In this document: in pieces, positions 7,647 through 25,591 of the stretch
Position numbering within the stretch: the first letter of the stretch is position 1
How the letters are laid out: every line of letters starts with the position of its first letter
Program-made: the position numbers and the translations under genes
Notes under the pieces: model-generated
What the model saw: the letters and a program-made list of their open reading frames with translations, nothing else
The model's database searches: none
Told to the model about the DNA's origin: nothing
DNA from: a virus
Virus record (IMG/VR): IMGVR_UViG_3300031999_000001
Coordinates: 126,001-190,000 of that record
Direction: 5' to 3' (one strand)
DNA: 64,000 nucleotides

Positions 7647-9083
7647 CTAAACATTTATTTTATCGTCAGAAACAACTGTAAATGAAAGAGTTTGTTTATT
7701 TTCATAATAATTACCATTTTTTAATCCAATCTGCAAGAAATAATCTTGAGGTATTAACCATGATGTATCAAGATTAAATTCATAACCAGTATTTGTTCTG
7801 TTTATTGAAGTAAATGGTATTACATCTATTTCATATTTTTTTGCATTTGTTGTAAATAAACGGTATTCAATATCTAAAGGTAAGAAATTATTTTGATTAG
7901 CATATAATTCTTTTATTGTTAATTTTATTTTTTTTATACTACCTGCTCTAACATTTTCTTTTTCACCAATTCCCCAGAAGTAAAAAAAATAATTATCAAA
8001 ATTCATCTGATATGATTGATTAAATGTATAATATTTATCTTCTGATATTAAATAAAATTCTCCCTCATATTGAGTTACTCTGCCGTTAATTGTTATTGAC
8101 CATACATCTTTAAATAAAACAGCATCTGGATATGTTTGAGAATCAACATTTAATGTTATTTTATAAATTCCTTTATTTACATTAATTATTGAATTACCGC
8201 TTATTGTTCCAATAAGATTGTCTTCATGATCAAATATTTCAACTTTATTTACAATAATGTTTTGTTGAAAACCACCAATATTTACATATAGGTATAAATC
8301 ATTATCTTTATCAAGATAGAAATAATTTCTATCATCAAGAATTGTATCATCAATTATTGTTTCAATATATGGTTCATAATAAGTATTGGTATGTTTTGTA
8401 TGAAATGCAACTGCTTGTCTAAATTCAGGTTCAAGTTCTTCATAAATATCTCTAAATTTAACGCCCAAACCAAATGAAGCACCCGTATATGCTGATGTTC
8501 CAGTATATCCTGTATCAAATAACCTTTGATTTATATAATCAGTAACATTAATTTCAAGATTTTCATTGCCTTTTTCGAATCTTTCTGTGCCAATAATTTG
8601 AGTTACACCACTAACATATGCACCAGCTACTGTCCAGCCACTTGTTGTTGTTCTTGCTGACCAATTTGACGCTTGTGGATATATTATCGGTTGTAAAGTA
8701 TCTACATATGGAAATTGTGCATCATTATATATAAAATCATAACCCGAACCTTCATCCCAATCTTCATTTATATTAAATATATCCAAATCAAAACTGGATG
8801 CTCTATCAATATTTAAACTATATGATTTTTTTCCAAGATATTCTGAAGCATAACTAATTGTATTGGTCATATGTAACACATGACTTACAATTCTATTGGG
8901 ATTAATAAAACCATCGTCAATCCTACTGCGTAAATCATCTAAATCAATATCAAATATAAACCTACTGACTTGCTTATTCAAAGTACCATAAGATATTTCA
9001 GTTACGGGGTTCTGTGAGTTATTCGTTAGATTACTTTCGATTAACGTAGTATTTTTTTTAAAATATGACCTGAAAATTGACAT
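7647..9083 (-). CDS. Probable virion structural protein
   Basis: A 478-residue protein when started at the ATG at 9083 (MSIFRSYFKK). An upstream in-frame TTG at 9116 would add 11 residues, but those codons contain the GTATTTATATA motif, which favours 9083. The sequence is rich in beta-type aromatic and Asn residues, with motifs such as YTGTSAYTGASFGLGV in the middle and Ig-like segments in the second half. No family is recognised. An own promoter motif and a terminator on the upstream side point to a late structural gene, perhaps a neck, fiber or decoration component. Confidence 0.6.
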   Translation of the reverse strand: MSIFRSYFKKNTTLIESNLTNNSQNPVTEISYGTLNKQVSRFIFDIDLDDLRSRIDDGFINPNRIVSHVLHMTNTISYASEYLGKKSYSLNIDRASSFDLDIFNINEDWDEGSGYDFIYNDAQFPYVDTLQPIIYPQASNWSARTTTSGWTVAGAYVSGVTQIIGTERFEKGNENLEINVTDYINQRLFDTGYTGTSAYTGASFGLGVKFRDIYEELEPEFRQAVAFHTKHTNTYYEPYIETIIDDTILDDRNYFYLDKDNDLYLYVNIGGFQQNIIVNKVEIFDHEDNLIGTISGNSIINVNKGIYKITLNVDSQTYPDAVLFKDVWSITINGRVTQYEGEFYLISEDKYYTFNQSYQMNFDNYFFYFWGIGEKENVRAGSIKKIKLTIKELYANQNNFLPLDIEYRLFTTNAKKYEIDVIPFTSINRTNTGYEFNLDTSWLIPQDYFLQIGLKNGNYYENKQTLSFTVVSDDKINV

Positions 9084-9094
9084 GCTCTTATTTT

Positions 9095-9105
9095 TATATA
9101 AATAC
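9095..9105 (-). promoter_or_regulatory. GTATTTATATA motif before structural gene
   Basis: The minus strand reads GTATTTATATA ending 12 nt upstream of the preferred ATG at 9083. It is one of the best copies of the dispersed motif and helps decide the start codon of the gene. Confidence 0.55.
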
Positions 9106-9115
9106 CCAACAAACA

Positions 9116-9146
9116 AAAAAGACTACAATTTAGTAGTCTTTTTATT
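9116..9146. terminator. Symmetric intrinsic terminator
   Basis: AAAAAGACTAC and GTAGTCTTTTT form an 11-bp stem with a 6-nt loop, with T runs on both strands. On the minus strand it ends the internal-head-protein operon (13607-9177) just before the next promoter motif. Confidence 0.8.
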
Positions 9147-9176: not shown

Positions 9177-11672
9177 TTAAACTGTTTCCACATTTTCATC
9201 AGTAAATTTTATACCACGTTGAGTTAATATTTTCTTTGCTTCTTCTTTAGACATTCCACCCATAACACCAGCCATAGCTCCGGGCATTCTTACAGTTTTC
9301 TTTGCAATTTGTATTTGATGCCATGTTGCTGGGTCACGTTGTTTTAATTCACTTTCTTTTGACTCACCAAGTTCATTTTCTTTTTTTTCTGGTTCATCTG
9401 TTGACATTTTCTTTGCAAATTCTGCTGGAGAACCCATATCTTTATCTGGATTACTTAAATCAGCTTCTTCATTGCCTTCAACTTCATCACCAACATTTTT
9501 TGGTTTATAACCAAGAAGCATATCTGTCATTTCTTTATCATCTTGTTTTTCAAAACTTTCTGGTGGAAAATCTTTTGCTAATTGTCTATCATTAAAACAA
9601 CCTGAAGGATTCATTGGGTCAGTACTACCTGCACCATATTTTTCAACATCAGCTTCCATTTTTTCAAGACGATCATAATAATTAGGGATTTCAGTCAGGT
9701 GATCCATTGTTATTTCTATTGCAATCATTGGGTTGTCAGTATGTTCCAATTCAACTTTCATGCCTTTTAATATTTGTTCTGGGTCGAATTCCAATGGTGA
9801 TTTTTCATCACCTAATCCACCTTGAAGCATTTCACCCGTTTCTTCTTTATCTTGTGCAAGTTGTGCAACTTCATCACCTTGTGGTTCTAATGACATACCA
9901 TCATCAGGTTTTTCTTCAGTATCTGCTGGTGGTTCATTATCTGTTTGATGTGCTATTTGATCATCTGGATTTGTGATCTCTGATTTATTATCTTCATCTG
10001 ACATTTTTTCTTCTTCATTAAAATCAAATTTTGTATCATAAGGTAACGGATGTTTATCTCCAGATTTTTCCAAATCTTGACCAATATCATGTTTAGCAAC
10101 TTTTTTTGCTCCCCATCCTTTCGGAGCAGCAGGTAAATTTGCAATATCTTCATCTCCATATACTTCTTCTTCATTCATTGTTAGTTCATCTATTTTTGAT
10201 AAATCATATTGCAAACCAATATAACCAATACTTGGATTCCATGACATTATATAACCATCTTTACGATATGTTTTATCAGCAGTTCCATGATTTTCTTCTT
10301 GTGAACCTTCATGTTCTCCGGGGTAATGCCATTGCTTCAAATATTCTAATGCAGCATCTTCACCTTCTCTATCAAGTCTTTCAAGTGCATCAAACGCTTC
10401 ATCACCTTGTAAAAATACAACATTTTCATATTTATCATGATCTGTTGATTCATTAGCACTTATTTTAACTTTTTTTATTCTTATTTTCTTTTTCTTTGGA
10501 TAATGTGTTTCTGGTTTAAATTCCTTACCAATAATATCTGGATAATCATTTGTTTTATTCGTATTTTCTAAAAACGGTTCAGCTTCTTTTGGAAATACTC
10601 TTCTTTTCTCAGGTGTTACGGGTTTTTCACCGATAAGTATATTAATTTCTCCCATCAACTCATTTATTGTTGGTGCATAATCAGGATTTCCTTTTCTTGT
10701 GATTATATTATCATATGCCTGCCAGATTATTTTTTTCTTTTTTTCATTTATTTTAGGAACGGGTTCATCATCAACTTCTTTAGTATCATCAGTTGTTATT
10801 TGTGGAACTGTTATGGGTTGTTGCTGTGTTGCTTGTTTAAAACGTGCCAATTCCTGATTTATGATATCATCTTCTTCTTTATCCCATTCATTCAAATCAG
10901 CAATAACACTTTTGCCCGTAATTCTTTCAACCTCTGCTTTTAATTCTTGACTTGTCGGTACATAATTAGAATTTGTATTTTTTGTAATTAAATTATCATA
11001 TGCTGTATTAATAATCTGATAAGCCTTTGGTTTTGTAACACGTTGATTATCAAATTCATCCATTTCATTAATATATTTTTCAAGTTCTTCTGCACTTACC
11101 CTTACATCTGGATTTGTTGGTTTTTCATCAGCATATGCTTTACCTGTTTGCATATTATCCCTACCACCACCAAATGGATATGAATCAATTTTTTGTATTG
11201 CTTCTTCATAAAGACTATCAACAGGTTCTTCTTCTTCAATATCAATATATTCGTCAATAATATCAAACAATTCATTATTATGCTGTGCATTAAATTGTTT
11301 TAATGCGTTTTCATCCATTTCAACACTATTTTCACTATTTGCATCATCAAATGTGAAACTCATCATTATAACATTATCTATTTTATAAACACCTTCTTGA
11401 TCTTGTTCGCTTGAAATTGTTTTAAACGTAAATGTTATATTATTTCCATTGTTGTCAACACATAATAATTCAATAAAATTTTCATTATCTTTTGTTTGTG
11501 TATTACTGTGTTTTACTTTAAGATTACCACTTTTAAGTTCAGTAAATGCAACTTCAAGTACACTTTGGGGATTATAATTTTGTCCAAATGCTTCATTTAA
11601 TTTAATTTTATTAACATTTTGAAACATTTCCAAAAATCTTTCCTTACTTCCTATTTGCTTATATATTTTCAT
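9177..11672 (-). CDS. Large probable internal head protein with capsid-targeting-like tag
   Basis: An 831-residue acidic protein. Residues 1-27 (MKIYKQIGSKERFLEMF... KLNE) resemble the N-termini of the next upstream genes and end in LNE before Ala28, matching the T4 prohead protease rule [LI]xE. Two copies of a roughly 38-residue unit occur at about 217-254 and 313-350, sharing AYDNhITxxxNxxYxPTxxEL. A region with QWHYPGEHEG and YIMSWNPSIGYIGLQYDL lies near 455-500. The C-terminal half is rich in Asp, Glu and Lys. The gene is last in a five-gene operon ending at a terminator. Function is unknown; a core or ejected head protein is inferred from the tag. Confidence 0.7.
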   Translation of the reverse strand: MKIYKQIGSKERFLEMFQNVNKIKLNEAFGQNYNPQSVLEVAFTELKSGNLKVKHSNTQTKDNENFIELLCVDNNGNNITFTFKTISSEQDQEGVYKIDNVIMMSFTFDDANSENSVEMDENALKQFNAQHNNELFDIIDEYIDIEEEEPVDSLYEEAIQKIDSYPFGGGRDNMQTGKAYADEKPTNPDVRVSAEELEKYINEMDEFDNQRVTKPKAYQIINTAYDNLITKNTNSNYVPTSQELKAEVERITGKSVIADLNEWDKEEDDIINQELARFKQATQQQPITVPQITTDDTKEVDDEPVPKINEKKKKIIWQAYDNIITRKGNPDYAPTINELMGEINILIGEKPVTPEKRRVFPKEAEPFLENTNKTNDYPDIIGKEFKPETHYPKKKKIRIKKVKISANESTDHDKYENVVFLQGDEAFDALERLDREGEDAALEYLKQWHYPGEHEGSQEENHGTADKTYRKDGYIMSWNPSIGYIGLQYDLSKIDELTMNEEEVYGDEDIANLPAAPKGWGAKKVAKHDIGQDLEKSGDKHPLPYDTKFDFNEEEKMSDEDNKSEITNPDDQIAHQTDNEPPADTEEKPDDGMSLEPQGDEVAQLAQDKEETGEMLQGGLGDEKSPLEFDPEQILKGMKVELEHTDNPMIAIEITMDHLTEIPNYYDRLEKMEADVEKYGAGSTDPMNPSGCFNDRQLAKDFPPESFEKQDDKEMTDMLLGYKPKNVGDEVEGNEEADLSNPDKDMGSPAEFAKKMSTDEPEKKENELGESKESELKQRDPATWHQIQIAKKTVRMPGAMAGVMGGMSKEEAKKILTQRGIKFTDENVETV

Positions 11673-11684
11673 ATCTATTTATTT

Positions 11685-12131
11685 TTATTCAAAAATTATT
11701 GGATTCGTCTTACCGAATTCTCTTAAAAAAACACCAGCAAGTGCATTTGCTTCATTTTCATGTTCACTGCCAGTATTGTTTGAATTCGATGTTAATTTAC
11801 CCTCTTTATATTGCTTGTGATGTATTAATTCATGTGCTAATGTTCTTAATATGTCTGCTAAATTTCTATTTACTGCAACCACTCTTAATTCATTTGTTTC
11901 TGGTGTATATTTACCAAATGATTTCATATTTTCAGCTTCTTTATCATCATATGAAATTTTTATATCTGGCATTTTATCACCTAAATTAAGCTGTTTATCG
12001 GCATATTCAACAAATTTGTTAATAACCTCATTTTTCTTTTCAACAGGAAGTACCTGTTCATTAAGATTATTAACTTTTTTCATCATTTCAAAAAGCCTTT
12101 CTTTTGAACCATATGAATAAAATATTTTCAT
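11685..12131 (-). CDS. Zinc metallopeptidase with capsid-targeting-like tag
   Basis: A 148-residue protein. The N-terminal tag MKIFYSYGSKERLFEMMKKV continues to LNE at 23-25. The remaining domain is a small zincin: HELIH at 100-104 and the probable third-ligand region EHENEANA (123-130), as in IrrE/ImmA- or SprT-like peptidases, where HExxH His residues and a downstream Glu bind zinc. The gene is 13 nt upstream of the 831-residue gene. If the tag works as in T4, the peptidase is packaged inside the capsid and could act during maturation or after injection. It is not the usual serine-type prohead protease. Confidence 0.78.
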   Translation of the reverse strand: MKIFYSYGSKERLFEMMKKVNNLNEQVLPVEKKNEVINKFVEYADKQLNLGDKMPDIKISYDDKEAENMKSFGKYTPETNELRVVAVNRNLADILRTLAHELIHHKQYKEGKLTSNSNNTGSEHENEANALAGVFLREFGKTNPIIFE

Positions 12132-12133
12132 AA

Positions 12134-12688
12134 TTAACTTTCTGGTTCTCTACCCCTTAAATAAGGTGCTTCACTATCGTTTCCTGATTGATTTTTTGGT
12201 GTTTCTTGATTCCAAATTTCTTTTGCTTTATTATAAAAAGATTTTTCATCGCCAAAATTTTCACCAATTACTGGAAATGCACCCATTTTTTCAACAAGAT
12301 CAAAATCTTCAAGATGTTGAAGTTCTTCTGAACTCAACATTCCATCATAATCAGTTAAATCGCCATAATTATAAGCAATAGCATCTTTATAACCGGGTTT
12401 ACCTGTCACTACATTATAATTAATCTGTAATCTTTCATATAATGCGTGCCAATCAATTGAATTAAAATTACCAATACCTTGTTTATATTGTGGTCCGTCA
12501 TCACGTTCTGGTTCATCTTGTGGGTCAAAAGCATCAGGTTGATACTCTGTTCCCATTGGTTCACCTGCATCGTTTTTTACGGTATTCCAACCTTCATTCA
12601 ATTTTGGTTTAAATGTCGGGTCTATTTTTTGCATAACCTCAAAAAGTCTTTGTTTATTGTCTTTTTTAACCATTTTATACAATTTCAT
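12134..12688 (-). CDS. Probable internal head protein with capsid-targeting-like tag
   Basis: A 184-residue protein from the ATG at 12688 (MKLYKMVKKDNKQRLFEVMQ), chosen over the ATG at 12706 because it aligns with the tags of the neighbouring genes and overlaps the upstream stop. The tag ends KLNE at residue 32 before Gly33. The rest is acidic and polar, with NYNVVTGKPGYKDAIAYNYG in the middle and no recognised family. It is translationally coupled to the 241-residue gene. An internal or core head role is inferred. Confidence 0.65.
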   Translation of the reverse strand: MKLYKMVKKDNKQRLFEVMQKIDPTFKPKLNEGWNTVKNDAGEPMGTEYQPDAFDPQDEPERDDGPQYKQGIGNFNSIDWHALYERLQINYNVVTGKPGYKDAIAYNYGDLTDYDGMLSSEELQHLEDFDLVEKMGAFPVIGENFGDEKSFYNKAKEIWNQETPKNQSGNDSEAPYLRGREPES

Positions 12689-13400
12689 TAAAACTATCTT
12701 GGACATCTATTTTTGATTTTTGCGGTAAATCATCAAAATCAGCAACAAACGTACCATCAGGTAATTTGTTTATGCCCTTTTCCATTTCTTTATTTCTTTT
12801 TTCATTAAACCAATTTCCTGACCAAAAATCATTTAAATTAAAATAATATGGATAAGAAACATTAGTTTTGCTCATAAGTTTTTCAGAATTGGTTGGTTCA
12901 CGAACTTCTTCAACATCAGCATTTAATGTATCTAATTTTGCATTTAATCCCTGAACAGTACTATCCAAACTTTCTAATTTATCATGAATACTTTTCATGG
13001 CTTCGATATTATGTTTAATAATATCATTTTGAATATCATCAACTTGTTGTTCTGGCTCTGCTGATGGCATTGGTGCACCCATACCCATAGGGTCGGTTGC
13101 TGTCATATCTACAGGTGCTCCATTTGTTTTTGTATCACCAGTTTTATCAAATGCTGGTATAGGAGCATCCATACCAATAGGTTGATCATTCGAAGGTGCT
13201 GGGGGCACTTCACCGCCACCCGGTTTTTCAGCATCTTCTTGATCACCAGCTTCATTAGTTAACGGAGGAACATCATCATATTCCTCGCCATCATTTACTA
13301 ATGGGCGATATTTGGGAGATTCGTTGATTATATAATCAACACGATGTTTAATCTTTCTTAAATGTTCTTTAGAAAGATTATTTTTCTTATCATTTTTCAT
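12675..13400 (-). CDS. Probable head core/scaffold protein with tag
   Basis: A 241-residue protein. The N-terminus MKNDKKNNLSKEHLRKIKHR continues to INE at 25-27 before Ser28, a diverged form of the operon's shared tag. A Pro/Gly/Asp-rich linker (about 45-120) follows, then a predicted coiled coil near 125-165 with leucine and isoleucine heptads, then an aromatic C-terminal segment (SYPYYFNLNDFW). Disorder plus coiled coil would suit a prohead core or scaffold protein, but no family is recognised. Confidence 0.6.
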   Translation of the reverse strand: MKNDKKNNLSKEHLRKIKHRVDYIINESPKYRPLVNDGEEYDDVPPLTNEAGDQEDAEKPGGGEVPPAPSNDQPIGMDAPIPAFDKTGDTKTNGAPVDMTATDPMGMGAPMPSAEPEQQVDDIQNDIIKHNIEAMKSIHDKLESLDSTVQGLNAKLDTLNADVEEVREPTNSEKLMSKTNVSYPYYFNLNDFWSGNWFNEKRNKEMEKGINKLPDGTFVADFDDLPQKSKIDVQDSFNEIV

Positions 13401-14953: not shown

Positions 14954-15733
14954 TTACTTAATTTTTTTTAAATCAACAATAACCACACCTCTTTGAGTTA
15001 CCACCCAAGAAGCACATTTATTTGCAAATCGTATTGCTTCACAAATATCATTATTTTCCATGAATTTTGCAACAAGTGCTGCAAGAAAAGTATCACCAGC
15101 ACCACTTAAATCCCTGACATTATGTTCATTTTCAATTGAAAATTTTTCAATTTTAATTTCACCATCATCATTATAATTTAACATTGCACCATCTTTACCT
15201 AATGTTATAATAATATCATTTGGAAATTCATATGTTAAATATTCTTTATTTTCATTATATTCTTTTTCATTAATTTTTATATATTTGATATTAAATGCCC
15301 ATTTTCCAATTATTTTTTTTGTATCCATAAATATTAAAGGATGATTTTCTGCAATATATATAATATCATCATGACTTAAAAATCCTTTATTATAATCGGA
15401 AATTATAATTGCAACATATTGATTAAAATCAATTCCTTTCAATTCTTTTGCCCTTAATGGTTTAATTTTATCATTTTCGTCAACCCTAAGTAACATTTGG
15501 TTTGAAACTTCATCAACATATCTCATTTTTACTGGTCTGATATCATTTGTAAAAATATCACAATGAACACCTAATGCTTTGAGATTTTCATAAACATTTA
15601 TTGCCATTCCACCATTACCAGTTGTTCTTAAGGGAAGAAAAATTGGTACGGGTGCTTCGGGACTTAATTTATCACATATTCCATATCTGAACACATCCTC
15701 ACAACTATCGCCAATTACTAATACTTTTTTCAT
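14954..15733 (-). CDS. PfkB-family sugar kinase, RfaE/HldE kinase-domain-like
   Basis: A 259-residue ribokinase-fold protein. The N-terminus VIGDSCEDVFRYG and the segment KLSPEAPVPIF resemble the kinase domain of HldE/RfaE, and the C-terminal LSGAGDTFLAAL (about 210-221) is the PfkB signature with the catalytic Asp. HldE phosphorylates D-glycero-D-manno-heptose 7-phosphate; the adenylyltransferase domain is missing here. With the adjacent HAD phosphatase it could build or modify an activated sugar. It overlaps the next gene upstream by 4 nt. Confidence 0.78.
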   Translation of the reverse strand: MKKVLVIGDSCEDVFRYGICDKLSPEAPVPIFLPLRTTGNGGMAINVYENLKALGVHCDIFTNDIRPVKMRYVDEVSNQMLLRVDENDKIKPLRAKELKGIDFNQYVAIIISDYNKGFLSHDDIIYIAENHPLIFMDTKKIIGKWAFNIKYIKINEKEYNENKEYLTYEFPNDIIITLGKDGAMLNYNDDGEIKIEKFSIENEHNVRDLSGAGDTFLAALVAKFMENNDICEAIRFANKCASWVVTQRGVVIVDLKKIK

Positions 15734-17208
15734 TTCTTATTATATTTCTTTAATGCTATTAATTGTTTTTTAATGTTTGATATTTCATAATCGGTTTCAA
15801 GCATTTTATTTAATGGTTTTTCCATACTAAATTCATTGATTTTTACTGATTTTTTATATACTTTTCTTATTGTTCTTAATAAATCACATTTATGTAAACC
15901 TTTAACACCAATTTGTGTAATAACATCAGAATTATCCCAATTTAACATTATTTTTTCGGCAATTTTACACCAAAACAATGTTGTAATACCATTCCAATAA
16001 TAATTAACATAACCATTCACTTCTTCTTTTTCATCAACACTTAAAAACCAATCCAATAAAGATTTATTTGAATTTAATTCATGCCCAATTATTGATGTTC
16101 TAATGATTTTGGTGTTCTTAAAATTATCAACAATTATTTTAGATATCTTAGCTTTACTTTTACCATAATCATCATTAGCATCACGTTCATCGGTTTTTTT
16201 ATATTTTTCTGGATATGGAATGTCTCCAGAAAATTCACAATCTGTTGAAGGATGAAGAACTTTTTTTCCGATAGATTCTAAAAATATTGGTAAATCAACA
16301 TTAATTTTATCATAATCTTCTGATTTGTATTTTTTTTGCGGTATTGCACCAATACAATTTATAATAAAATCAACATTACAATTAATTATAAAATCTTTAA
16401 ATTCATTTGAATCCCATCTAAAATCACAGACATATACGATATATCTATTATTAAAATATTTATATACCATATTACCAAGCATTCCATTATGTCCCAATAT
16501 CAGTAATTTTATACCTTCTTTTAATTTAAGTAATTCACGTTTTATTTTTGACATGTTTCTTATAATTCCATTCAGATTTTTACTTGTTACTGAATCATTA
16601 TGTCTTCTTTTATAAGATAGAAATTCTGGTACGCCATCAAATGGTATGTTATAAATTGTTGATTTTATCATCCAATAATAATCTTCTGAAAATTTTAAAT
16701 GTTCAGGAAATGGAAAATTTTTATAAACATATTTCGGAATGAAAATACCCGTAAATCCAATTCGTGATTTACACCAAATCGTTTCCTCAAATTTTTCAGA
16801 ACTCATTTTTTTTGTTTCTCTCTTTTTTGTAATATTATTATCTTTATCAATTATCCATGCATTATTATATAAAACAGATTTTGGAAATTTTTGCGCATAT
16901 TCTATTTTTATTTTTAATAAATCTTTATCAAAATAATCATCTGCAGGACACCAACACCAATAATCTCCATTACTTTCATCAAAACTTTTATTTATGATAA
17001 CACCAACATTATCTTGTTTATCTAATTTAAAAATTTTAACCCTTTTATCATTTTCATATTCTTTAATTATATTTAATGAATCATCGGTGCTGCCATCATC
17101 ATAAATGAGATATTCAAAATCCGTATAACTTTGATTTAAAACACTTTCTATTGCTTGCGCAATATATGAAGCATTGTTGTAATTAGATGTAAAAACCGAT
17201 ATTTTCAT
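15730..17208 (-). CDS. Fusion of GT2 glycosyltransferase and RmlD-like SDR reductase
   Basis: A 492-residue two-domain protein. Residues 1 to about 230 are a GT2 glycosyltransferase with VFTSNYNNASYI, the YDDGSTDDS motif (36-44) and PADDYFD (88-94) as the metal-binding site. Residues about 233-492 are an extended SDR with the nucleotide-binding GHNGMLG (239-245), NCIGAIPQ, HPSTDCEFSG and YGKSK (YxxxK, 348-352), like RmlD-type dehydrorhamnose reductases and the WbvR-type reductase of UDP-L-QuiNAc synthesis. Fusion would couple making a donor sugar to transferring one. No frameshift or internal start was seen that would argue for two genes. Confidence 0.8.
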   Translation of the reverse strand: MKISVFTSNYNNASYIAQAIESVLNQSYTDFEYLIYDDGSTDDSLNIIKEYENDKRVKIFKLDKQDNVGVIINKSFDESNGDYWCWCPADDYFDKDLLKIKIEYAQKFPKSVLYNNAWIIDKDNNITKKRETKKMSSEKFEETIWCKSRIGFTGIFIPKYVYKNFPFPEHLKFSEDYYWMIKSTIYNIPFDGVPEFLSYKRRHNDSVTSKNLNGIIRNMSKIKRELLKLKEGIKLLILGHNGMLGNMVYKYFNNRYIVYVCDFRWDSNEFKDFIINCNVDFIINCIGAIPQKKYKSEDYDKINVDLPIFLESIGKKVLHPSTDCEFSGDIPYPEKYKKTDERDANDDYGKSKAKISKIIVDNFKNTKIIRTSIIGHELNSNKSLLDWFLSVDEKEEVNGYVNYYWNGITTLFWCKIAEKIMLNWDNSDVITQIGVKGLHKCDLLRTIRKVYKKSVKINEFSMEKPLNKMLETDYEISNIKKQLIALKKYNKK

Positions 17209-17210
17209 AT

Positions 17211-17879
17211 TTATTTATTTATTAATTTTAAATTATATTTACTTACATTAAAATCAGACCTACTACCTAATAATTTGGTCATATGAATATTATCACCATG
17301 TATTGTCAAAAGCACATTTAAATTATCTATTTTTATTCCTTTAATGAAAATTCCAATACTACCATGTGATTTTGAATATGGTATACATTTATATTCATCT
17401 TTTTTTTCCATAACTGAAATAAAACCACTTGTACCTGTTGCATTCCATGTTTTTTTTCCTTTTGTTATTATATTAATCATATCCATTTTTTTTATATCAT
17501 AATAAAATGGAAATTCTGTTTCAATTATAGATTTATGAAGATTTTCAACAAAATCATTACCCAAACAATTATCACTATCAATTCTTGTTGTTAAAACATA
17601 TTCTTCATCAATAAGTTCCAGTAATTTCGGTAATATTTCTTTAAGAATTTTATTTGCTCCTGATGATTCAAGCAATAATTGATATTCATTACTAATTTTA
17701 CCCACAGGTTCATATCCCCATAAAGTAACGAACTTAAAATTTTTATTAGTTTGCACTTCAATTGATGACCTTAATGTATTATTTAAAATATTAATTCTAT
17801 TATTAAGCCAGACTTCATCTTTTGATTGTGGAAGCCATTTAATATTAACTCTACTAACAATTAAATGTGTAAATTTCAT
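17211..17879 (-). CDS. Putative rhamnosyltransferase-like glycosyltransferase
   Basis: A 222-residue protein beginning FTHLIVSRVNIKW, with WLNNRINILNNTLRSS and the DxD-like TTRIDSDNCLGNDFV near 106-120. This resembles the bacterial family annotated as putative rhamnosyl transferases. It would transfer a sugar from a nucleotide donor. It ends 2 nt before the fusion gene and starts 3 nt after the 4,6-dehydratase stop, inside a tightly packed operon. Confidence 0.7.
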   Translation of the reverse strand: MKFTHLIVSRVNIKWLPQSKDEVWLNNRINILNNTLRSSIEVQTNKNFKFVTLWGYEPVGKISNEYQLLLESSGANKILKEILPKLLELIDEEYVLTTRIDSDNCLGNDFVENLHKSIIETEFPFYYDIKKMDMINIITKGKKTWNATGTSGFISVMEKKDEYKCIPYSKSHGSIGIFIKGIKIDNLNVLLTIHGDNIHMTKLLGSRSDFNVSKYNLKLINK

Positions 17880-17882
17880 ATT

Positions 17883-18884
17883 TTACTTTATTAAAAAACC
17901 ACCCTCAAATAATAATTCACGTAAATAATTTTTATCCTTTATATTATCTGCCGATGAAAATGTTTTAAAATTTACTTTTTTATGATTATTTAAGTACGTA
18001 TATTCTTTATTTATTTTTATTGATGGTAATATAATATAATAATTTTCATAAAATTTATATGAATTCACTGATTCGTGTTCAGATATTAATATTTCATGTA
18101 CTTTCTCACCCTCTCTAATGCCAATCTCTTCAATTTTTGTATCTGAATTTCCATAATATTCAATCAACACCTTTGCTAAATCACTAATATAAAATGATGG
18201 CATATTCATTACAAAAGTTTCACCACCAATGCTATGTTCAGCAGCTTCAAATAATAAAAAAATTGCTTGAGATAATGTAAGAAAAAATCTGGTCATTGTC
18301 TTATCAGTAATTGTTACTTTATTTTGTGTTTTAATTTGATTAATAAAATGTGGAACAACACTACCATTTGAACCCAAAACATTACCACCCCTAATACAAA
18401 CAAAATCAGTATTATTTGTTAAATTATTTGCCTGAATTGTAAGTTTTTCACCAACCGATTTTGTCATTCCATATAAATTCGTTGGTGAAACCGCTTTATC
18501 TGTTGAAATATCAACAAACTTTTTAACTCCATACTTAATAGCAGAATTAATTAAATTTATTGTTCCAATAATATTAGTTTTTATTGCTTCTTGTGGTTGA
18601 TTTTCACAAACAGGAACATGTTTTAATGCTGCGAGATGAAAAACATAATTAATATTTTTATGATTAAATAATCTATCAACAGCATCCGCATCACGAACAT
18701 CACCAATAATATATTCAATTTTATTATTATTAAATTTTCTCAGCATGTTTACTTGTGCAAGTTCACCACGAGAATATATAATTATTTTTTTTGGGTCTTT
18801 CTCCAAAAGTTGTAATGTTAATTCATTTCCCCATGAACCCGAACCACCATCAATTAAAATTATTTTGTTTTCAAACATAATCAT
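17883..18884 (-). CDS. UDP-GlcNAc 4,6-dehydratase (PseB/FnlA/CapE-like)
   Basis: A 333-residue extended SDR. The nucleotide-binding loop near the N-terminus is GGSGSWGNELT; downstream are LAALKHVPVCENQPQEAI, DISTDKAVSPTNLYGMTKS and an MTRFFLT segment, all typical of the UDP-N-acetylglucosamine 4,6-dehydratase and 5-epimerase group. It would convert UDP-GlcNAc to a 4-keto-6-deoxy sugar, the first step to L-FucNAc, L-QuiNAc or pseudaminic-type sugars. The start overlaps the deacetylase stop (ATGA). A reductase domain and a 2-epimerase in the same island suggest the L-aminosugar branch. Confidence 0.87.
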   Translation of the reverse strand: MIMFENKIILIDGGSGSWGNELTLQLLEKDPKKIIIYSRGELAQVNMLRKFNNNKIEYIIGDVRDADAVDRLFNHKNINYVFHLAALKHVPVCENQPQEAIKTNIIGTINLINSAIKYGVKKFVDISTDKAVSPTNLYGMTKSVGEKLTIQANNLTNNTDFVCIRGGNVLGSNGSVVPHFINQIKTQNKVTITDKTMTRFFLTLSQAIFLLFEAAEHSIGGETFVMNMPSFYISDLAKVLIEYYGNSDTKIEEIGIREGEKVHEILISEHESVNSYKFYENYYIILPSIKINKEYTYLNNHKKVNFKTFSSADNIKDKNYLRELLFEGGFLIK

Positions 18885-19519
18885 TTATTAATTTTTATCA
18901 TTCTTATTATTTTAAATGACTCAGCATATTCCAAATTAGATGAAAAACCACGAATATTTGAATAACTCATTAATAGTTCTTTTGGTCTAAATTTTCTTAC
19001 TTGTGATTTATGTAATTTATATGCATTTATTTTATTTTCAATATCAATTTCTTCAAAATAATTTGGTTGAAATTCATTTTCACCCCAAAGTAAATATTGT
19101 TCAACCTCATAAACAAACACATTTGGTACAAAATAATTTAAATCATGTGGTCTTAATGCAACAATACAAGCATCATAAACTTCTTTATGATCTTGATTGT
19201 ATGAAAAATTTGGAATAAAAATTTCATTTGGTTTTAATTCATTAATAATATCAGTAATTTCATTAATTATCATTTCTTTTTTATAATTATTTACTTGATT
19301 AGTACCTATTCGATATTCAAAATTTAAAAATTTCGATACTGCATCAACTTCTTTAATTCTTTCATCTCTTCTCACAACATGAAATAAATCAATACCTAAA
19401 TAATAAACAAAAGAACAATTATTATTTTTTCTATTATTTAAAATTCCAGCACAACCCAATACTTCATCATCACAATGTGGTGATATTATTAATGTTTTAT
19501 ATGTCTTTTTCATATTCAA
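18881..19519 (-). CDS. PIG-L/LmbE-family N-deacetylase
   Basis: A 212-residue protein with LIISPHCDDEVLGCAGIL near the N-terminus; PHxDDE is the zinc-binding and catalytic signature of the GlcNAc-PI/LmbE deacetylase family. A second motif, FSYNQDHKEVYDA, provides the usual HxxxH-type residues. The enzyme would remove an acetyl group from an N-acetylated sugar. The next gene upstream is a formyltransferase, so deacetylation followed by N-formylation is a plausible pair. It overlaps both neighbours. Confidence 0.85.
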   Translation of the reverse strand: MNMKKTYKTLIISPHCDDEVLGCAGILNNRKNNNCSFVYYLGIDLFHVVRRDERIKEVDAVSKFLNFEYRIGTNQVNNYKKEMIINEITDIINELKPNEIFIPNFSYNQDHKEVYDACIVALRPHDLNYFVPNVFVYEVEQYLLWGENEFQPNYFEEIDIENKINAYKLHKSQVRKFRPKELLMSYSNIRGFSSNLEYAESFKIIRMIKINK

Positions 19520-20162
19520 TAATTTTTAATATAATTTTTCCAGTTTTACAATTAATATAACATTCTGGATATGGTTTTTGTAACGAACGTACTTTATTAT
19601 AAAAATATTCAGCATCGTTATTTAAAAAATCTTCTGGTTTTATTTCAGAATTATTTGGCTTTAAACGTTTGTATGTTGTAGCTTCTTCCTTATTTTGTTT
19701 TATCCATAATATTGAATCATTCTTATAATTTTCAATAAAATCTTTTGTTCCTATAATACCAAAATTTTCTATTTTTTTTAATATTATATCTAAATATCCG
19801 TTTAATTCAAAATCAACCTGATAATATATATCACCATCATCTAATCCCTTTTCCATTTTAAATATTGTAACTGCTGAAAATTTTTCCCCTGCAATTATTT
19901 GATTTTGTATTGGTGTTCCGCCTCTATATTTGGGTAATTTTGATGGATGTAAACATAAACAAATATAAGAATCAACAATTTTCTGAGACACCATCCAACT
20001 CCAACCATAAAAAAATATAACATCTGGATTTATTATATTAATAAAATCAATTGTACATAATTTTTTATTTGTAATAAGTATATATTCATCTTCCAATGAA
20101 GATATTTCCTTAAAAATATTAATTGCCCAATCTCTATATGCAAAAAATAAAAATCTTTTCAT
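19497..20162 (-). CDS. Formyltransferase-family protein, probable sugar N-formyltransferase
   Basis: A 221-residue protein with CLHPSKLPKYRGGTPIQNQI and KGLDDGDIY, the formyl-folate binding and catalytic region of the methionyl-tRNA formyltransferase fold (usually HxSxLPxYRG). It is shorter than Fmt (about 310 residues) and lacks its tRNA-binding domain, as do sugar N-formyltransferases. It would formylate an amino sugar using N10-formyl-THF, perhaps the product of the neighbouring deacetylase. It overlaps that gene by 23 nt. Confidence 0.8.
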   Translation of the reverse strand: MKRFLFFAYRDWAINIFKEISSLEDEYILITNKKLCTIDFINIINPDVIFFYGWSWMVSQKIVDSYICLCLHPSKLPKYRGGTPIQNQIIAGEKFSAVTIFKMEKGLDDGDIYYQVDFELNGYLDIILKKIENFGIIGTKDFIENYKNDSILWIKQNKEEATTYKRLKPNNSEIKPEDFLNNDAEYFYNKVRSLQKPYPECYINCKTGKIILKIIEYEKDI

Positions 20163-20920
20163 ATTTTTTTATGTTTTTCACCTTCCTGAAAATGATACAC
20201 AATAGAATCATTTGAATTTATATGTTTTACACCAATTGAATTTAGTCTAACAAAAAATTCAGTATCACCAGTTCTTGATATTATATTATATTTTCCATTA
20301 TGTAAATTTCCTTCTGGATAATATCCAACCTTTTCAATAATATCTTTATATAGCATTATTGGCATAAAAAGATTTCCAATTGAAATACTATCATTTTTTA
20401 TTTCATTTACTTTTTTTAGAAACGCTTCTTCGTTAAAATTTTTTATTGTTTGTCCAAAATCATAATGTTCACAAACAGATAAATTAATTGGATTGGTAAA
20501 TCTATGATGAGGCTGTATTATTTTTGAGGAAACCACAACTTCACGTGTTAATCTCTTTTTTAAATTAACTAACCAATCTGGTGAAAATGCATTATCGCTA
20601 TTAATCAACATTATTATTGGATTATTAGACATTCTAATACCATAATTATATCCAGCATATACTCTACTTATATATTCTGGATATGCAAATCCCATATTAA
20701 ATAATTCTTGTTCTGTACGCTTAATATTATTATTTATAAAATGTGGATAATTTTTTTCTTTTAGAAGTTTTAATACATCATCAGTTGCATCATTAGCAAC
20801 AAAATAAAATTCTGCTTCATCGCAATTAAGTTCAGGTGTGTGTTTTATGAGATTATTATATACAAACTCGGCATATTCAACAGATTGATATATTAATGAT
20901 ATGATTGATATTTTTTCCAT
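20159..20920 (-). CDS. GT2-like glycosyltransferase
   Basis: A 253-residue GT-A fold protein starting MEKISIISLIYQSVEYAEFV. The nucleotide-sugar site FVANDATDD and the metal-site equivalent MLINSDNAFSPDWL (about 133-146) fit GT2 enzymes. The C-terminal SRTGDTEFFVRL and YHFQEG give a probable acceptor/base region. It overlaps the formyltransferase gene by 4 nt. Substrate unknown. Confidence 0.75.
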   Translation of the reverse strand: MEKISIISLIYQSVEYAEFVYNNLIKHTPELNCDEAEFYFVANDATDDVLKLLKEKNYPHFINNNIKRTEQELFNMGFAYPEYISRVYAGYNYGIRMSNNPIIMLINSDNAFSPDWLVNLKKRLTREVVVSSKIIQPHHRFTNPINLSVCEHYDFGQTIKNFNEEAFLKKVNEIKNDSISIGNLFMPIMLYKDIIEKVGYYPEGNLHNGKYNIISRTGDTEFFVRLNSIGVKHINSNDSIVYHFQEGEKHKKI

Positions 20921-20924
20921 AATT

Positions 20925-21608
20925 TTATTTCTTTGGTATTAACATTATTGAACATCTTGGCACATAATGAACTTTAGTATTATATAAAATTTTATTATTA
21001 ATTTTATCATTTTTTTTCATTAATTGACATATATACATATCTGGTAGATCAGTCATATATTCAACATCATATTTATCAAGAATATTATTATAATAATATA
21101 ATTGTTCCGAATATGTTTTTTTATTAAAATCAAACCAGTCATGAATAAAAATACATTTACTATGATTAATTAAATTTAAAAAATTTTCATTTATGAATTT
21201 TGCCATTTTGGTAGAATGTTCACAATCAATCAAGAACATATCAAATTCGTTATTTTTAATAAACTTTTGAATTACATCATATTGTTCATAAAGATTAATT
21301 TTTTCATATTTTATATCATAAAATATTGGTTGTAATGCAAAACTTGTGCGTTTAATTCCTAAACTATCAATAAATTTACTTGAACTTCCAGCACCGAATT
21401 CAACAACATTTGTTATATTATTTTCAAATATAAACCTTTTTAATATAAATAAATCAAATGGATTTATGCCGAAATTTTGTCCGATTAATTTTACAATATC
21501 ATCTAATCTATATTCATCAATAAAATTAAAAATCTTATTGAAAATATTCTGATAATTATATTTATAATTATTTGAATTTGATATTATTATTCCCCATTCA
21601 TCTCCCAT
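20925..21608 (-). CDS. Class I SAM-dependent methyltransferase-like protein
   Basis: A 227-residue protein. Motif I is VVEFGAGSSSKFID (about 69-82) and an acidic strand FDMFLIDCEHS follows near 120, in the arrangement of class I methyltransferases such as the Methyltransf_24 type. An HDWFDFNKK segment follows. It probably methylates a glycan, or uses the fold otherwise. Four nucleotides separate it from the GT2 gene downstream. Confidence 0.6.
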   Translation of the reverse strand: MGDEWGIIISNSNNYKYNYQNIFNKIFNFIDEYRLDDIVKLIGQNFGINPFDLFILKRFIFENNITNVVEFGAGSSSKFIDSLGIKRTSFALQPIFYDIKYEKINLYEQYDVIQKFIKNNEFDMFLIDCEHSTKMAKFINENFLNLINHSKCIFIHDWFDFNKKTYSEQLYYYNNILDKYDVEYMTDLPDMYICQLMKKNDKINNKILYNTKVHYVPRCSIMLIPKK

Positions 21609-21609
21609 T

Positions 21610-22443
21610 TTACATATTATTTATATAATTTTCCCATAAAATTTTGCCCGTATATCTGTCCCATTGTTTTTCGAAAATAACATCTCTTGGATTATCACCC
21701 GCTTCAAAATCTTTTTCAATATTTAAAATTTTTCTTTGTTTAAGATTACATGCCATTCCTTCATATTCAATAATATAATAGGGTCTTAAAAGACTGACAG
21801 ATAATTGAAAATCAGCACAATTCATCAATTCTACCATTTTTTGTTGATTTATTAATACGTGTTGTTGACCATATCCATTAAAATCACCCTTATTTGGATA
21901 CCAAACAATAATCCAATAAATGCTCGGATTCTCATTTGCATATTTTTGAACATGTTGAAATCCTTTCATTGGATGTGTTGTTCCACACCAAAAACCAATT
22001 TCTTTATTTAATGGAACACCATATTTTAATTTTAAATTATATTTTTCTTCATCTGAATACGATTTAAATAAATCAGTATTAACACAAATAGGTAATATAT
22101 CAACTTTACCATACGGTTCATAAAATGGTACTGCAAATTTTGATGATACAACTCTTCTGTTGGCTGCTTTTGCAGTTTGATATGTTACATTAATAACACC
22201 ATCCCAATGATTAACATTAAAAACTTCTTTCATTTCAGGATATAATTCCCAACATAAAGCAATTACATTTGCTGGCATTGCATTTAACGGTCCTGCAGTT
22301 GAATATCTTAAAACAGTATCATTTTCATTATATTGTAAAGGAAGTTTAAATGATGTGTTTTCAAAAACTTTTTCAAACCACACCCAAAATGTTTCTTCTC
22401 CATATGCACATTTTAATCCATGTATTGGTGATAAATATATCAT
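21610..22443 (-). CDS. GT-B-type glycosyltransferase-like protein
   Basis: A 277-residue protein with VDILPICVNTDLF, followed by KEIGFWCGTTHPMKGFQHV and YWIIVWYPNKG, resembling the start of the C-terminal nucleotide-sugar domain of GT4-like enzymes. It is shorter than a full GT-B enzyme (350-400). The start overlaps the upstream methyltransferase stop by 4 nt. Confidence 0.62.
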   Translation of the reverse strand: MIYLSPIHGLKCAYGEETFWVWFEKVFENTSFKLPLQYNENDTVLRYSTAGPLNAMPANVIALCWELYPEMKEVFNVNHWDGVINVTYQTAKAANRRVVSSKFAVPFYEPYGKVDILPICVNTDLFKSYSDEEKYNLKLKYGVPLNKEIGFWCGTTHPMKGFQHVQKYANENPSIYWIIVWYPNKGDFNGYGQQHVLINQQKMVELMNCADFQLSVSLLRPYYIIEYEGMACNLKQRKILNIEKDFEAGDNPRDVIFEKQWDRYTGKILWENYINNM

Positions 22444-22979
22444 TTTTTTAAAAATTTTAATGTTCTTCTATCATTATCCCTACAAACAATTGTAATTCCA
22501 GCAACTCCAATTGGAAGTGTGATTAAATTTAATTCTGGATGATTTTCTTTAATCCAATCATGCATTTTATATGAATCACTACAATACATTTGTTCTAAAT
22601 ACTTTTCTTCAAATGGGTCTGTATCATGAAGAAGAATAATACCATGAATATTTAAACATTTTAACGAATTTTCAAAATCTCTTTTCACTTGTTCAAAACG
22701 ATGATCAGCATCAATAAAAATAATATCAGCATATCCAATAAAATCTTTAAAAAACTCATCAGTTGTTTTTAAATGAAACTCAAAATTTCTAAAAAGTAAT
22801 TTATCATCAATATCAACACCAATACACCTTTTAGAATATTTAGTAATTTCCTTAATGTTTAATCCTTGTAACACACCCAATTCCAAATAAGTTTCACATC
22901 CGGTTAATTCAACAATTTTAGATATTAACGTTGGATGTAATTCAAATTTACTATAATTATATGCAAATCTGTTTATCAT
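22440..22979 (-). CDS. Class I methyltransferase-like protein
   Basis: A 179-residue protein with motif I YLELGVLQGLNIKEI (about 31-45), CIGVDIDDKLL as the acidic end of strand 2, and DIIFIDADHRFEQVKRDF, the pattern of Methyltransf_24/CmcI-like enzymes. HDTDPFEEKY may supply metal or catalytic residues. It lies in the glycan island and probably modifies a sugar hydroxyl. Confidence 0.7.
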   Translation of the reverse strand: MINRFAYNYSKFELHPTLISKIVELTGCETYLELGVLQGLNIKEITKYSKRCIGVDIDDKLLFRNFEFHLKTTDEFFKDFIGYADIIFIDADHRFEQVKRDFENSLKCLNIHGIILLHDTDPFEEKYLEQMYCSDSYKMHDWIKENHPELNLITLPIGVAGITIVCRDNDRRTLKFLKK

Positions 22980-23018
22980 ATTTTTCCAATTAATATATTA
23001 ATTAAACAATAATTTTTA

Positions 23019-23879
23019 TTAAGGATTAATATTTTTATTTTTTAATAAATTTCCTAACACATTGTTTGGTAAATTCGTTAAACCACCATTAGTTTCTTGT
23101 AAAAATTTTCCAGATAATGCACAACCACCATACCAATGAATGCCAATTGTATTTGTGGTAATTTTTGGTTTTGCTCCATTGTATATCTCCGTTTTATTTG
23201 CTGCACCCATTGAATAAACAGCATCATCACCAATATCTGCCACAGAAGAAATTTTATTAATTAATTGTAATGTTCGATAATTTTTATTCCACAACAATGA
23301 ACCAATTGTCTGATACATTTTTTTATTATATACTCTTTTTGCTTCTTCAATTAATATTTTATAAAAATCATTATTTCCTGCACTCATAAGAAATCCAATA
23401 GAATGTCCATGCGGTGAAATACAAACAAATGTTTCAATATTTTTATTATTTTCTATGTTCACCGTTAAGCAATTAATTGGTCTAAAATAAAGAATATCCA
23501 TATCAGACCATACTCCACCAATCGTTGATAAAATTTCAAGTCTTATAAAATCCGATTTATGTACTTCAGATACATCATTACTAAATCCATAATTATTAAA
23601 GTCAGTTGGAATCATTTCTATTGGCAAGTTTTTTAGTTCTTCTATGTAATCATCACACGAAAATTCTTGTTCTTGTTCTTTGGTATTCCAAGTAACAATA
23701 GTTTTTGATGGATATTTAGGATACCAAAACATAACTTTCCATTCTGGATTTTTTAACATAAATGAACGTATGGTCATAAATCTGAGATACGAAAATATTC
23801 CAGTACCCCAATAAATATGAAAAATTTTTGGAACTTTTAAATGCCATACATTATTTAATGAGTTAATATATTGTTCCAT
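23019..23879 (-). CDS. GT32-type glycosyltransferase (DXD sugar-binding)
   Basis: A 286-residue protein with IPKIFHIYWGTG near the N-terminus and SDFIRLEILSTIGGVWSDMD around 111-130, the DXD motif of the Gly_transf_sug/GT32 family; the C-terminal GIHWYGG is also typical. It shares architecture with the gene at 26391-27266, so the two are probable paralogs acting at different steps. Confidence 0.8.
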   Translation of the reverse strand: MEQYINSLNNVWHLKVPKIFHIYWGTGIFSYLRFMTIRSFMLKNPEWKVMFWYPKYPSKTIVTWNTKEQEQEFSCDDYIEELKNLPIEMIPTDFNNYGFSNDVSEVHKSDFIRLEILSTIGGVWSDMDILYFRPINCLTVNIENNKNIETFVCISPHGHSIGFLMSAGNNDFYKILIEEAKRVYNKKMYQTIGSLLWNKNYRTLQLINKISSVADIGDDAVYSMGAANKTEIYNGAKPKITTNTIGIHWYGGCALSGKFLQETNGGLTNLPNNVLGNLLKNKNINP

Positions 23880-23880
23880 T

Positions 23881-24534
23881 TTAATATATATATGTTAATT
23901 CCATATAATTAATTAAATTTTTATTTTTATACTCTATAATATATGGTAGTATTGCCATATTTAATGCGGTATATCCTTTATCAATTTTTGTTCGTACCAT
24001 TAAACCCGTCCATGATGATGGAGATTTAAGAAAATATTTAATAAATCCATTAACATTAATTAAATTATAATCATAAAATGGAATCCCCGCATATTGACAA
24101 TCATGATATAAAATCAAATCAAATTTATCATAAAGAGCATTAATTGATAGTGTTCTACATGCTGTAAATTGATCAACAAACAATAGATTTGGTTTTAATT
24201 CTGGAATAACTAAATTATGATAATAATTAAAAATTTCAAATTTTTTATCATCGGATAATTCTTTAAGATGTGTAAATATTTTAACTTCATTTAAGTCATG
24301 ATAAATTACATCAATATTTTTATATTTATTTCTAATGTGGTCAATCCATTCCTTATCACTTTCAACACCTAATAATTTGGTTTTATAATTAAGAAAAACG
24401 GGTGTTGAATTATCTCCGATTCCTAATTCAAGTACAAATGCTGGTGTATACAATTCCATTACCGCTTTTATTATTGGTTGATGTGTTGACCATTCATAAC
24501 CATTATTGATATTCATATTACTTTTATTTTCCAA
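23881..24534 (-). CDS. Methyltransferase-like protein
   Basis: A 217-residue protein with FVLELGIGDNSTPVFL (about 33-48), a class I methyltransferase motif I, then LLGVESDKEW and DQFTACRTLS. A DLILYHDCQYAG segment lies near 140. Sequence similarity to classical enzymes is partial, so activity is unproven. It overlaps the 2-epimerase start region by 11 nt and sits between a GT32 gene and the epimerase. Confidence 0.58.
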   Translation of the reverse strand: MENKSNMNINNGYEWSTHQPIIKAVMELYTPAFVLELGIGDNSTPVFLNYKTKLLGVESDKEWIDHIRNKYKNIDVIYHDLNEVKIFTHLKELSDDKKFEIFNYYHNLVIPELKPNLLFVDQFTACRTLSINALYDKFDLILYHDCQYAGIPFYDYNLINVNGFIKYFLKSPSSWTGLMVRTKIDKGYTALNMAILPYIIEYKNKNLINYMELTYIY

Positions 24535-25591
24535 TTAATATATTAATTACTGTATCTGAAACATTTTCAACCAAATAATCATTAGGTACATACCATTTAT
24601 TTCCTCTATTAATTGCCGAATAAAATGCTTCAACAATATTTTCCGTCTTAATACCACACAATATATTTGAACCACACTCGATTGTTTCTTGTCTTTCAGT
24701 ACTTTCTCTTATTGTTAATGTTGGTACACCAAAAATACAACATTCTTCCTGTACAGTTCCACTATCAGAAATAACACACATTGCATTTTTTTCTAATTTA
24801 ATAAAATCAAAAAACCCTAATGGATGTGAAACAAGTATATTTTTATTTAAAATAATATTAAATTTTTCAAGTTTATTTTTTGTTCTTGGATGTAATGAAA
24901 AAACAACACAATAATTTTCCGAAATTTCATTAATTGCATTAATTATGCTTTTTAAGGATTCTTTATTATCAACATTTTCTGTTCTATGTGCTGTTACCAA
25001 CACAAATTTACCATCTTCTAAATTCCACTCATGCATTATAACGCTTTTATTAATATCATTCTCAAACTTATTTAATACTTCAAATATTGGATTACCAATT
25101 TTAAACACATAATTTTTATGATGTCCTTCATTTAAAAGATTTTGTTTGCTGTTTTCAGTATATGGTAAATTATATTTGGAAATACTATCAATAATTCTTC
25201 TATTTGCTTCTTCTGGTAATCTTTCATCATAACACCTATTTCCAGCTTCCATATGATATACTGGAATTTTATATTTTTCGGCAACAATTGATAATAATCC
25301 CGAATTTGTATCTCCCAATGTTAATATCTTATCTGGTTTTTCGACTTTCAATACTTTTTCAAATTCTAATATTGCATTTCCTAAAAAATCACCAAATGAC
25401 TGACTTTCTTTTTCAAAATAATAATTAGGTTTTCTTATTTTCATTTCATCAAAAAATCTACCACTTAAATTATAATCATAATTTTGATTTGTATATATTA
25501 AGACATGATTAACCAACATATTTAATTTTTCAATTATTATGCTTAACCTAATTAATTCAGGTCTTGTTCCAGTTATTGTTAATATTTTCAT
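24524..25591 (-). CDS. UDP-N-acetylglucosamine 2-epimerase (WecB/FnlC-like)
   Basis: A 355-residue GT-B fold epimerase with KILTITGTRPELIRLS at the N-terminus, HMEAGNRCYDERLPEE near 131-147, LVTAHRTENVD near 204 and a C-terminal SDSGTVQEECCIFGVP. These are hallmark motifs of the non-hydrolysing family. It would epimerise C2 of a UDP-HexNAc. With the 4,6-dehydratase (17883) and the RmlD-like reductase domain (15730) it completes a three-enzyme set like those making UDP-L-FucNAc or UDP-L-QuiNAc. Confidence 0.9.
   Translation of the reverse strand: MKILTITGTRPELIRLSIIIEKLNMLVNHVLIYTNQNYDYNLSGRFFDEMKIRKPNYYFEKESQSFGDFLGNAILEFEKVLKVEKPDKILTLGDTNSGLLSIVAEKYKIPVYHMEAGNRCYDERLPEEANRRIIDSISKYNLPYTENSKQNLLNEGHHKNYVFKIGNPIFEVLNKFENDINKSVIMHEWNLEDGKFVLVTAHRTENVDNKESLKSIINAINEISENYCVVFSLHPRTKNKLEKFNIILNKNILVSHPLGFFDFIKLEKNAMCVISDSGTVQEECCIFGVPTLTIRESTERQETIECGSNILCGIKTENIVEAFYSAINRGNKWYVPNDYLVENVSDTVINILIGK

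What the first reader, a model, noticed from the sequence alone, without database searches (positions are those of the whole stretch)
11685..12131. A zinc metallopeptidase predicted to be packaged inside the capsid
An HELIH zincin of only ~120 residues follows the targeting tag. Prohead proteases of T4-like phages are serine-type; a metallopeptidase with a tag would be either an unusual maturation enzyme or a protein injected with the DNA to cut a host target, for example a repressor-like protein as ImmA/IrrE peptidases do.
Basis: partly seen in the sequence, partly recalled or inferred. Interest (0 to 1): 0.72.

Follow-up and report, generated by a model that had tools for sequence, protein, structure and literature searches.

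The report
Tagged metallopeptidase likely packed in phage
A large T4-like bacterial virus carries a small zinc protease with a removable "put me in the capsid" tag, and every complete related virus locus checked keeps it, so the virus probably ships a ready-made protease inside its head; what it cuts is unknown.

Summary
Window 11685-12131(-) encodes a 148-residue protein: a 25-residue N-terminal tag ending in LNE, then a compact zincin (AlphaFold2 pLDDT 94.5) with HELIH and, 20 residues on, ENEAN, whose first Glu (E125) is the expected third zinc ligand. H100, E101, H104 and E125 are invariant in 46 sequences. The tag is a real module: a profile built from peptidase tags alone finds the N-termini of two unrelated neighbours (831 aa, E=7.7e-10; 190 aa, 2e-4) and of a polynucleotide-kinase-like protein (1e-4), against a best control of 0.14. 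The predicted cleavage site matches the T4 gp21 rule (L/I-X-E) and the site in this phage's own capsid protein. In other phage lineages the same peptidase carries other, T4-like capsid-targeting tags. Searching with a non-peptidase neighbour, 38 of 38 intact loci hold the tagged, catalytically intact peptidase beside the 831-aa protein: it is a core gene. A gp21-type prohead protease exists in the clade, so this enzyme is unlikely to be the maturation protease. Best reading: packaged cargo, ejected with the DNA, acting on a host target or on co-packaged proteins. Packaging, activity and target are untested. IrrE/ImmA membership is borderline.

The parts
11685..12131 (-). 148-aa tagged zincin metallopeptidase gene
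12057..12131 (-). N-terminal tag, residues 1-25 (MKIFYSYGSKERLFEMMKKVNNLNE), predicted capsid-targeting propeptide
   Evidence: tag-only profile finds neighbours' N-termini; low-confidence helix separate from the domain
12057..12065 (-). predicted prohead-protease site LNE (residues 23-25), cut after E25
   Evidence: L/I-X-E rule of T4 gp21; N and E at 93% and 100% in 30 non-redundant orthologues
11820..11834 (-). HELIH, residues 100-104: two zinc ligands and catalytic Glu
   Evidence: H100, E101, H104 invariant
11745..11759 (-). ENEAN, residues 125-129; E125 is the predicted third zinc ligand
   Evidence: E125 invariant, E127 becomes Q in L075, L143 and L155; Glu with Ala +3 and Asn +4 as in other HExxH..E families (own knowledge)
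9177..11672 (-). 831-aa protein with the same tag (MKIYKQIGSKERFLEMFQNVNKIKLNE) and a DUF5661 domain; always directly downstream of the peptidase
12134..12706 (-). 190-aa protein with related tag (KKDNKQRLFEVMQKIDPTFKPKLNE), present in part of the clade
12675..13400 (-). 241-aa coiled-coil protein; N-terminus LSKEHLRKIKHRVDYIINE resembles the tags only loosely (not found by the tag-only profile)
7647..9116 (-). 489-aa conserved neighbour of unknown function, used as independent query for synteny

Best explanation
The gene makes a zinc metallopeptidase that is packed into the capsid as cargo. Step 1 (inferred): the N-terminal tag binds the scaffold core of the assembling head, as T4 capsid-targeting sequences do. 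Step 2 (inferred from site conservation): the phage's S77 prohead protease cuts after LNE, freeing a 123-residue enzyme. Step 3 (inferred by analogy with T4 IPI-III and Alt): the enzyme leaves the head with the DNA and acts at the start of infection. Shown by sequence: tag, site, complete zinc site, co-tagged neighbours, conservation. Most likely substrate: a host protein whose early removal helps takeover or defeats defence; the next likeliest is the co-packaged 831-aa partner, which it would process in trans.
For: Tag shared by unrelated proteins of the same phage (7.7e-10, 1e-4, 2.3e-4; best of 4300 shuffled N-termini 0.14; mature parts unrelated). Conservation falls sharply after the LNE in the 831-aa partner, as in a cut propeptide. 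The capsid protein of this phage and of relative G004 carries ENQLSHMINE|S where other T4-like capsid proteins have ENQ...[L/I/V]xE. T4 biology: propeptides of 10-19 residues target internal proteins, gp21 cuts after L/I-X-E, internal proteins are ejected (PMC9026906, PMC3012670). In other lineages the same peptidase has different short T4-like tags (MISFKDFIKE, MKKFKQFLNE, MRFNELTE; 31 of 32 in the short-tag class have the hydrophobic-X-E site). Active site invariant. Core gene in the clade, 38/38. Phage-restricted family: at least 208 viral loci against 4 loci in the 84,980-species set. Fusions to other enzymes resemble injected 'polyvalent' proteins.
Against: No particle proteomics. The tag sequence is not T4's. 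About a dozen relatives start directly at the domain, without any tag (S-SRM01), so packaging is not inherent to the enzyme. L/I-X-E alone is weak: 39 of 79 background ORFs have one in residues 15-45. Universal conservation is unlike T4's variable internal proteins and could mean a structural or processing role.
Confidence: 0.5

Rival explanations
1. The peptidase is packaged in order to process co-packaged proteins, above all the adjacent tagged 831-aa protein, inside the head or just after ejection, as proposed for metallopeptidase domains of polyvalent proteins.
For: Immediate adjacency to the tagged 831-aa homologue in 38/38 loci and a single-ORF fusion of both in L019; partner length varies from 479 to 1029 aa; fusions to other domains in other lineages; Iyer 2017 model.
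Against: Other lineages keep the peptidase without that partner, alone or in other fusions; no cleavage site in the partner could be identified.
Confidence: 0.25
2. It is a second head-maturation protease that helps clear scaffold or capsid propeptides during assembly.
For: Core gene in the clade; Iyer 2021 suggests this for a different conserved zincin of group 1 jumbo phages.
Against: An S77 protease sits beside scaffold and capsid genes in relatives G003/G004; the peptidase looks like a substrate of it; untagged and fused relatives exist; the gene lies near the UvsX-like gene, about 60 kb from the capsid gene.
Confidence: 0.1
3. The N-terminal tag is not a capsid signal but a docking helix for another phage assembly, and the enzyme acts in the cytoplasm late in infection.
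For: Tag differs from T4's; untagged relatives must act in the cytoplasm after synthesis.
Against: Tag ends in the gp21-type site matching the capsid protein's own site; its place is taken by T4-like tags in other lineages.
Confidence: 0.15

Closest known systems
T4 internal proteins IPI, IPII, IPIII and Alt (capsid-targeting sequence cargo)
   Same: Short N-terminal propeptide ending in L/I-X-E, shared by otherwise unrelated proteins
   Different: None of the T4 ones is known as a protease; the tag is longer (25 residues) and of other sequence; here the gene is constant in the clade instead of variable
Zincin-like metallopeptidase domains of polyvalent proteins (Iyer et al. 2017) and ArdC
   Same: Same superfamily (HExxH plus Glu), phage-borne, fused to other enzyme domains in relatives; ArdC appears in the fold list (Z 6.2, 3.1 A over 95 residues)
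   Different: Free-standing and tagged here; Pfam MPTase-PolyVal matches only 1 of 46 members, at E 0.099
ImmA/IrrE (Peptidase_M78), PprI, CapP
   Same: HExxH..ExEAN motif; Pfam M78 just over cut-off; VIA Z 7.2-7.3 to IrrE, 3.1-3.2 A over 85 residues
   Different: No extra regulatory domain, no cognate repressor gene seen beside it; Wss1 scores slightly higher
T4 gp21 / Peptidase_S77 prohead protease
   Same: Acts, or is predicted to act, in or from the phage head
   Different: Serine fold; here a separate gene in the clade and the likely remover of this enzyme's tag

Membership tests
Zincin metallopeptidases (HExxH + Glu) | HExxH helix with third Glu ligand on the following helix | tested here: met
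Zincin metallopeptidases (HExxH + Glu) | Zincin fold in a structural model | tested here: met
   best VIA matches are zincins, Wss1 Z 9.0 (3.1 A over 104), selecase 8.0, lethal factor 7.6, IrrE 7.3; Foldseek E only 0.014 at best
Zincin metallopeptidases (HExxH + Glu) | Zinc-dependent proteolysis | not testable with these tools
   needs purified protein
ImmA/IrrE (M78) | Match to the family profile | tested here: inconclusive
   22.3 bits against cut-off 22; 25 of 46 relatives reach E 0.1; one relative scores 17.6, under the cut-off
ImmA/IrrE (M78) | Cleaves a cognate helix-turn-helix repressor | not testable with these tools
   no repressor gene recognised in the conserved neighbourhood, which does not exclude a host target
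T4-type capsid-targeted internal proteins | Shared N-terminal propeptide on unrelated proteins of one phage | tested here: met
T4-type capsid-targeted internal proteins | L/I-X-E cleavage site at the end of the propeptide | tested here: met
   same motif in the capsid protein
T4-type capsid-targeted internal proteins | gp21-type protease in the same phage | tested here: inconclusive
   absent from this contig, which ends inside the scaffold gene; present in relatives G003, G004
T4-type capsid-targeted internal proteins | Presence in particles and ejection into the host | not testable with these tools
   needs proteomics
Polyvalent-protein MPTases | Match to Pfam MPTase-PolyVal | tested here: not met
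   1 of 46 members, E 0.099

The most novel reading that the evidence does not exclude
A phage-only metallopeptidase family that has been coupled to whichever capsid-targeting tag its phage lineage uses, so that virions deliver an active protease that cuts a host regulator or defence protein before any phage gene is expressed.
Probability: 0.35. Interest if true: 0.78.

Novelty: new variant of a known kind. Interest (0 to 1): 0.56.

Why it matters
T4 internal proteins are known mostly as inhibitors or modifiers. A core, catalytically intact protease among capsid-tagged cargo would show that T4-like phages can deliver proteolysis at time zero. The shared tag also gives a sequence rule for listing the injected proteins of an uncultured phage clade, including a probable polynucleotide kinase, and so makes a hidden effector set testable.

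Tried and rejected
Prohead protease in this contig: PF03420 and PF04586 gave nothing; explained by the contig ending inside the scaffold gene, so absence is not evidence. Tag sharing within contigs of the short-tag lineages: weak, 14 of 395 against 226 of 10270 at score 15 and no clear excess at 20; not used as support. Late promoter TATAAATA: not directly upstream of the tagged operon, but uninformative at 28% G+C. NCBIfam and PADLOC: no match near a cut-off. Solved-structure sequence search: only chance matches. Mere presence of L/I-X-E near the N-terminus: background is 49%, so only its fixed place and conservation count. One search is discarded: part of its query was typed before the real sequence had been read. 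Cultured relatives: only Synechococcus phages B23 and S-SRM01 and the Flavobacterium immuto phages; no paper found that reports this protein in virions.

Full report
What is there. The window is bases 126001-190000 of a 200,057-base IMG/VR phage contig, 28% G+C, with a Gp23-type major capsid protein at contig 197136-198809 (E 1.6e-65), so a T4-like phage. The ORF at window 11685-12131(-) gives MKIFYSYGSKERLFEMMKKVNNLNEQVLP...AHELIHHKQYKEGKLTSNSNNTGSEHENEANALAGVFLREFGKTNPIIFE.

Enzyme. With 25 sequences the full-length model shows a poorly fixed N-terminal helix (pLDDT 62-65) and a well-predicted domain from residue 30; the mature domain alone with 46 sequences reaches pLDDT 94.5. R89, D93, R96, H100, E101, H104, Q107, G121, E125, N126, A128, N129, A132 and R137 are invariant (renumbered to the full protein). 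HELIH to E125 is a 20-residue gap. E125, not E127, is the likely third ligand: E127 is Gln in L075, L143 and L155. Fold comparison returns mostly zincins: Wss1 Z 9.0, selecase 8.0, lethal factor 7.6, IrrE/PprI 7.2-7.3, ArdC 6.2. These values are middling and mostly tied; they support the fold, not a subfamily. Pfam M78 is borderline. PHROG 87 'metallo-protease' is the best named family (1.2e-7), and the members scatter over several PHROGs.

Tag. A profile made only from tags of this peptidase and its orthologues was searched against the first 70 residues of all 860 ORFs of the phage. Besides the peptidase it found the 831-aa neighbour (7.7e-10), a 282-aa protein at contig 189804-190652 (1e-4) and the 190-aa neighbour (2.3e-4). 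Internal segments gave 0.17 at best, 4300 shuffled N-termini 0.14. The mature parts share no significant similarity. The 241-aa neighbour has a looser N-terminus ending in INE and is not found by this profile. In T4, gp21 cuts after L/I-X-E, propeptides of 10-19 residues target internal proteins to the core, and internal proteins are ejected (PMC9026906). The capsid protein of this phage reads ENQLSHMINE|S at the place where other T4-like capsid proteins have ENQ..xE (the cut site is inference). In the 831-aa orthologues conservation is high up to the LNE and collapses directly after it. Mere presence of L/I-X-E would mean little, as 49% of background ORFs have one.

Other lineages. By N-terminus the free-standing members form three classes: no extension, short T4-like tag (31 of 32 with a hydrophobic-X-E site), and the long tag of this clade. 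Others are fused: cytidylyltransferase-like (Pfam PF01467), M23 endopeptidase, HD (weak), HAD-like by eye, and very large proteins; Flavobacterium immuto has it in a 907-aa protein. On a weakly resolved tree of 102 rows the three free-standing classes need at least 6 changes, and the long-tag class one.

Core gene. To avoid choosing loci by the peptidase, the 489-aa neighbour was used as query: 79 loci. In all 38 inspected loci with intact upstream sequence the peptidase is present with its active-site pattern, an L/I-X-E tag, and the 831-aa homologue directly downstream (30 of the 38 are non-redundant). In L019 both are one ORF. pN/pS is about 0.25 in tag and domain.

Maturation protease. No S77 match in this contig, but the contig ends inside the scaffold gene. 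In relatives G003 and G004 an S77 frame lies beside scaffold and capsid genes. So the metallopeptidase does not replace gp21 in the clade.

Weighing. Packaging is well supported by inference and unproven. For function, the fusions and the T4 analogy favour action in the infected cell; universal conservation and the constant 831-aa partner favour processing of co-packaged protein. Iyer et al. note that conserved peptidases tend to follow virion type and patchy ones the conflict with the host (PMC7824862), and discuss both self-processing and host cleavage for packaged metallopeptidases (PMC5512222). I put host-directed action first, partner processing second, maturation last.

Noticed in passing
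L064:11640-13589(-) (relative G004, also L065): The S77 prohead protease frame is split by an insert of about 390-400 residues that starts at Cys after EADHPD and ends HWTGN before Ser, with a LAGLIDADG-like stretch (IGIYLAEGHCG): looks like an intein in the prohead protease.
   Followed up: partly
L050:1805-2653(-), contig 189804-190652, running past the window's end: Polynucleotide-kinase-like protein (AAA_33, phrog_505) with the same N-terminal tag but no L/I-X-E after it (SIDN): a possible capsid-packaged RNA-repair enzyme.
   Followed up: partly
L129:4260 onward: In another lineage the peptidase is fused to a peptidoglycan-binding-like region and an M23 endopeptidase behind a T4-like tag.
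   Followed up: partly
L053:8581-9903: Cytidyltransferase of Synechococcus phage S-SRM01 next to an untagged copy of the peptidase starts MKNFHQFITEA, very like the T4 capsid-targeting sequence.
   Followed up: no
window 14954-26000: Long run of glycosyltransferase, epimerase, sugar-kinase and methyltransferase-like ORFs (by eye) between the tagged operon and the tail genes.
   Followed up: no
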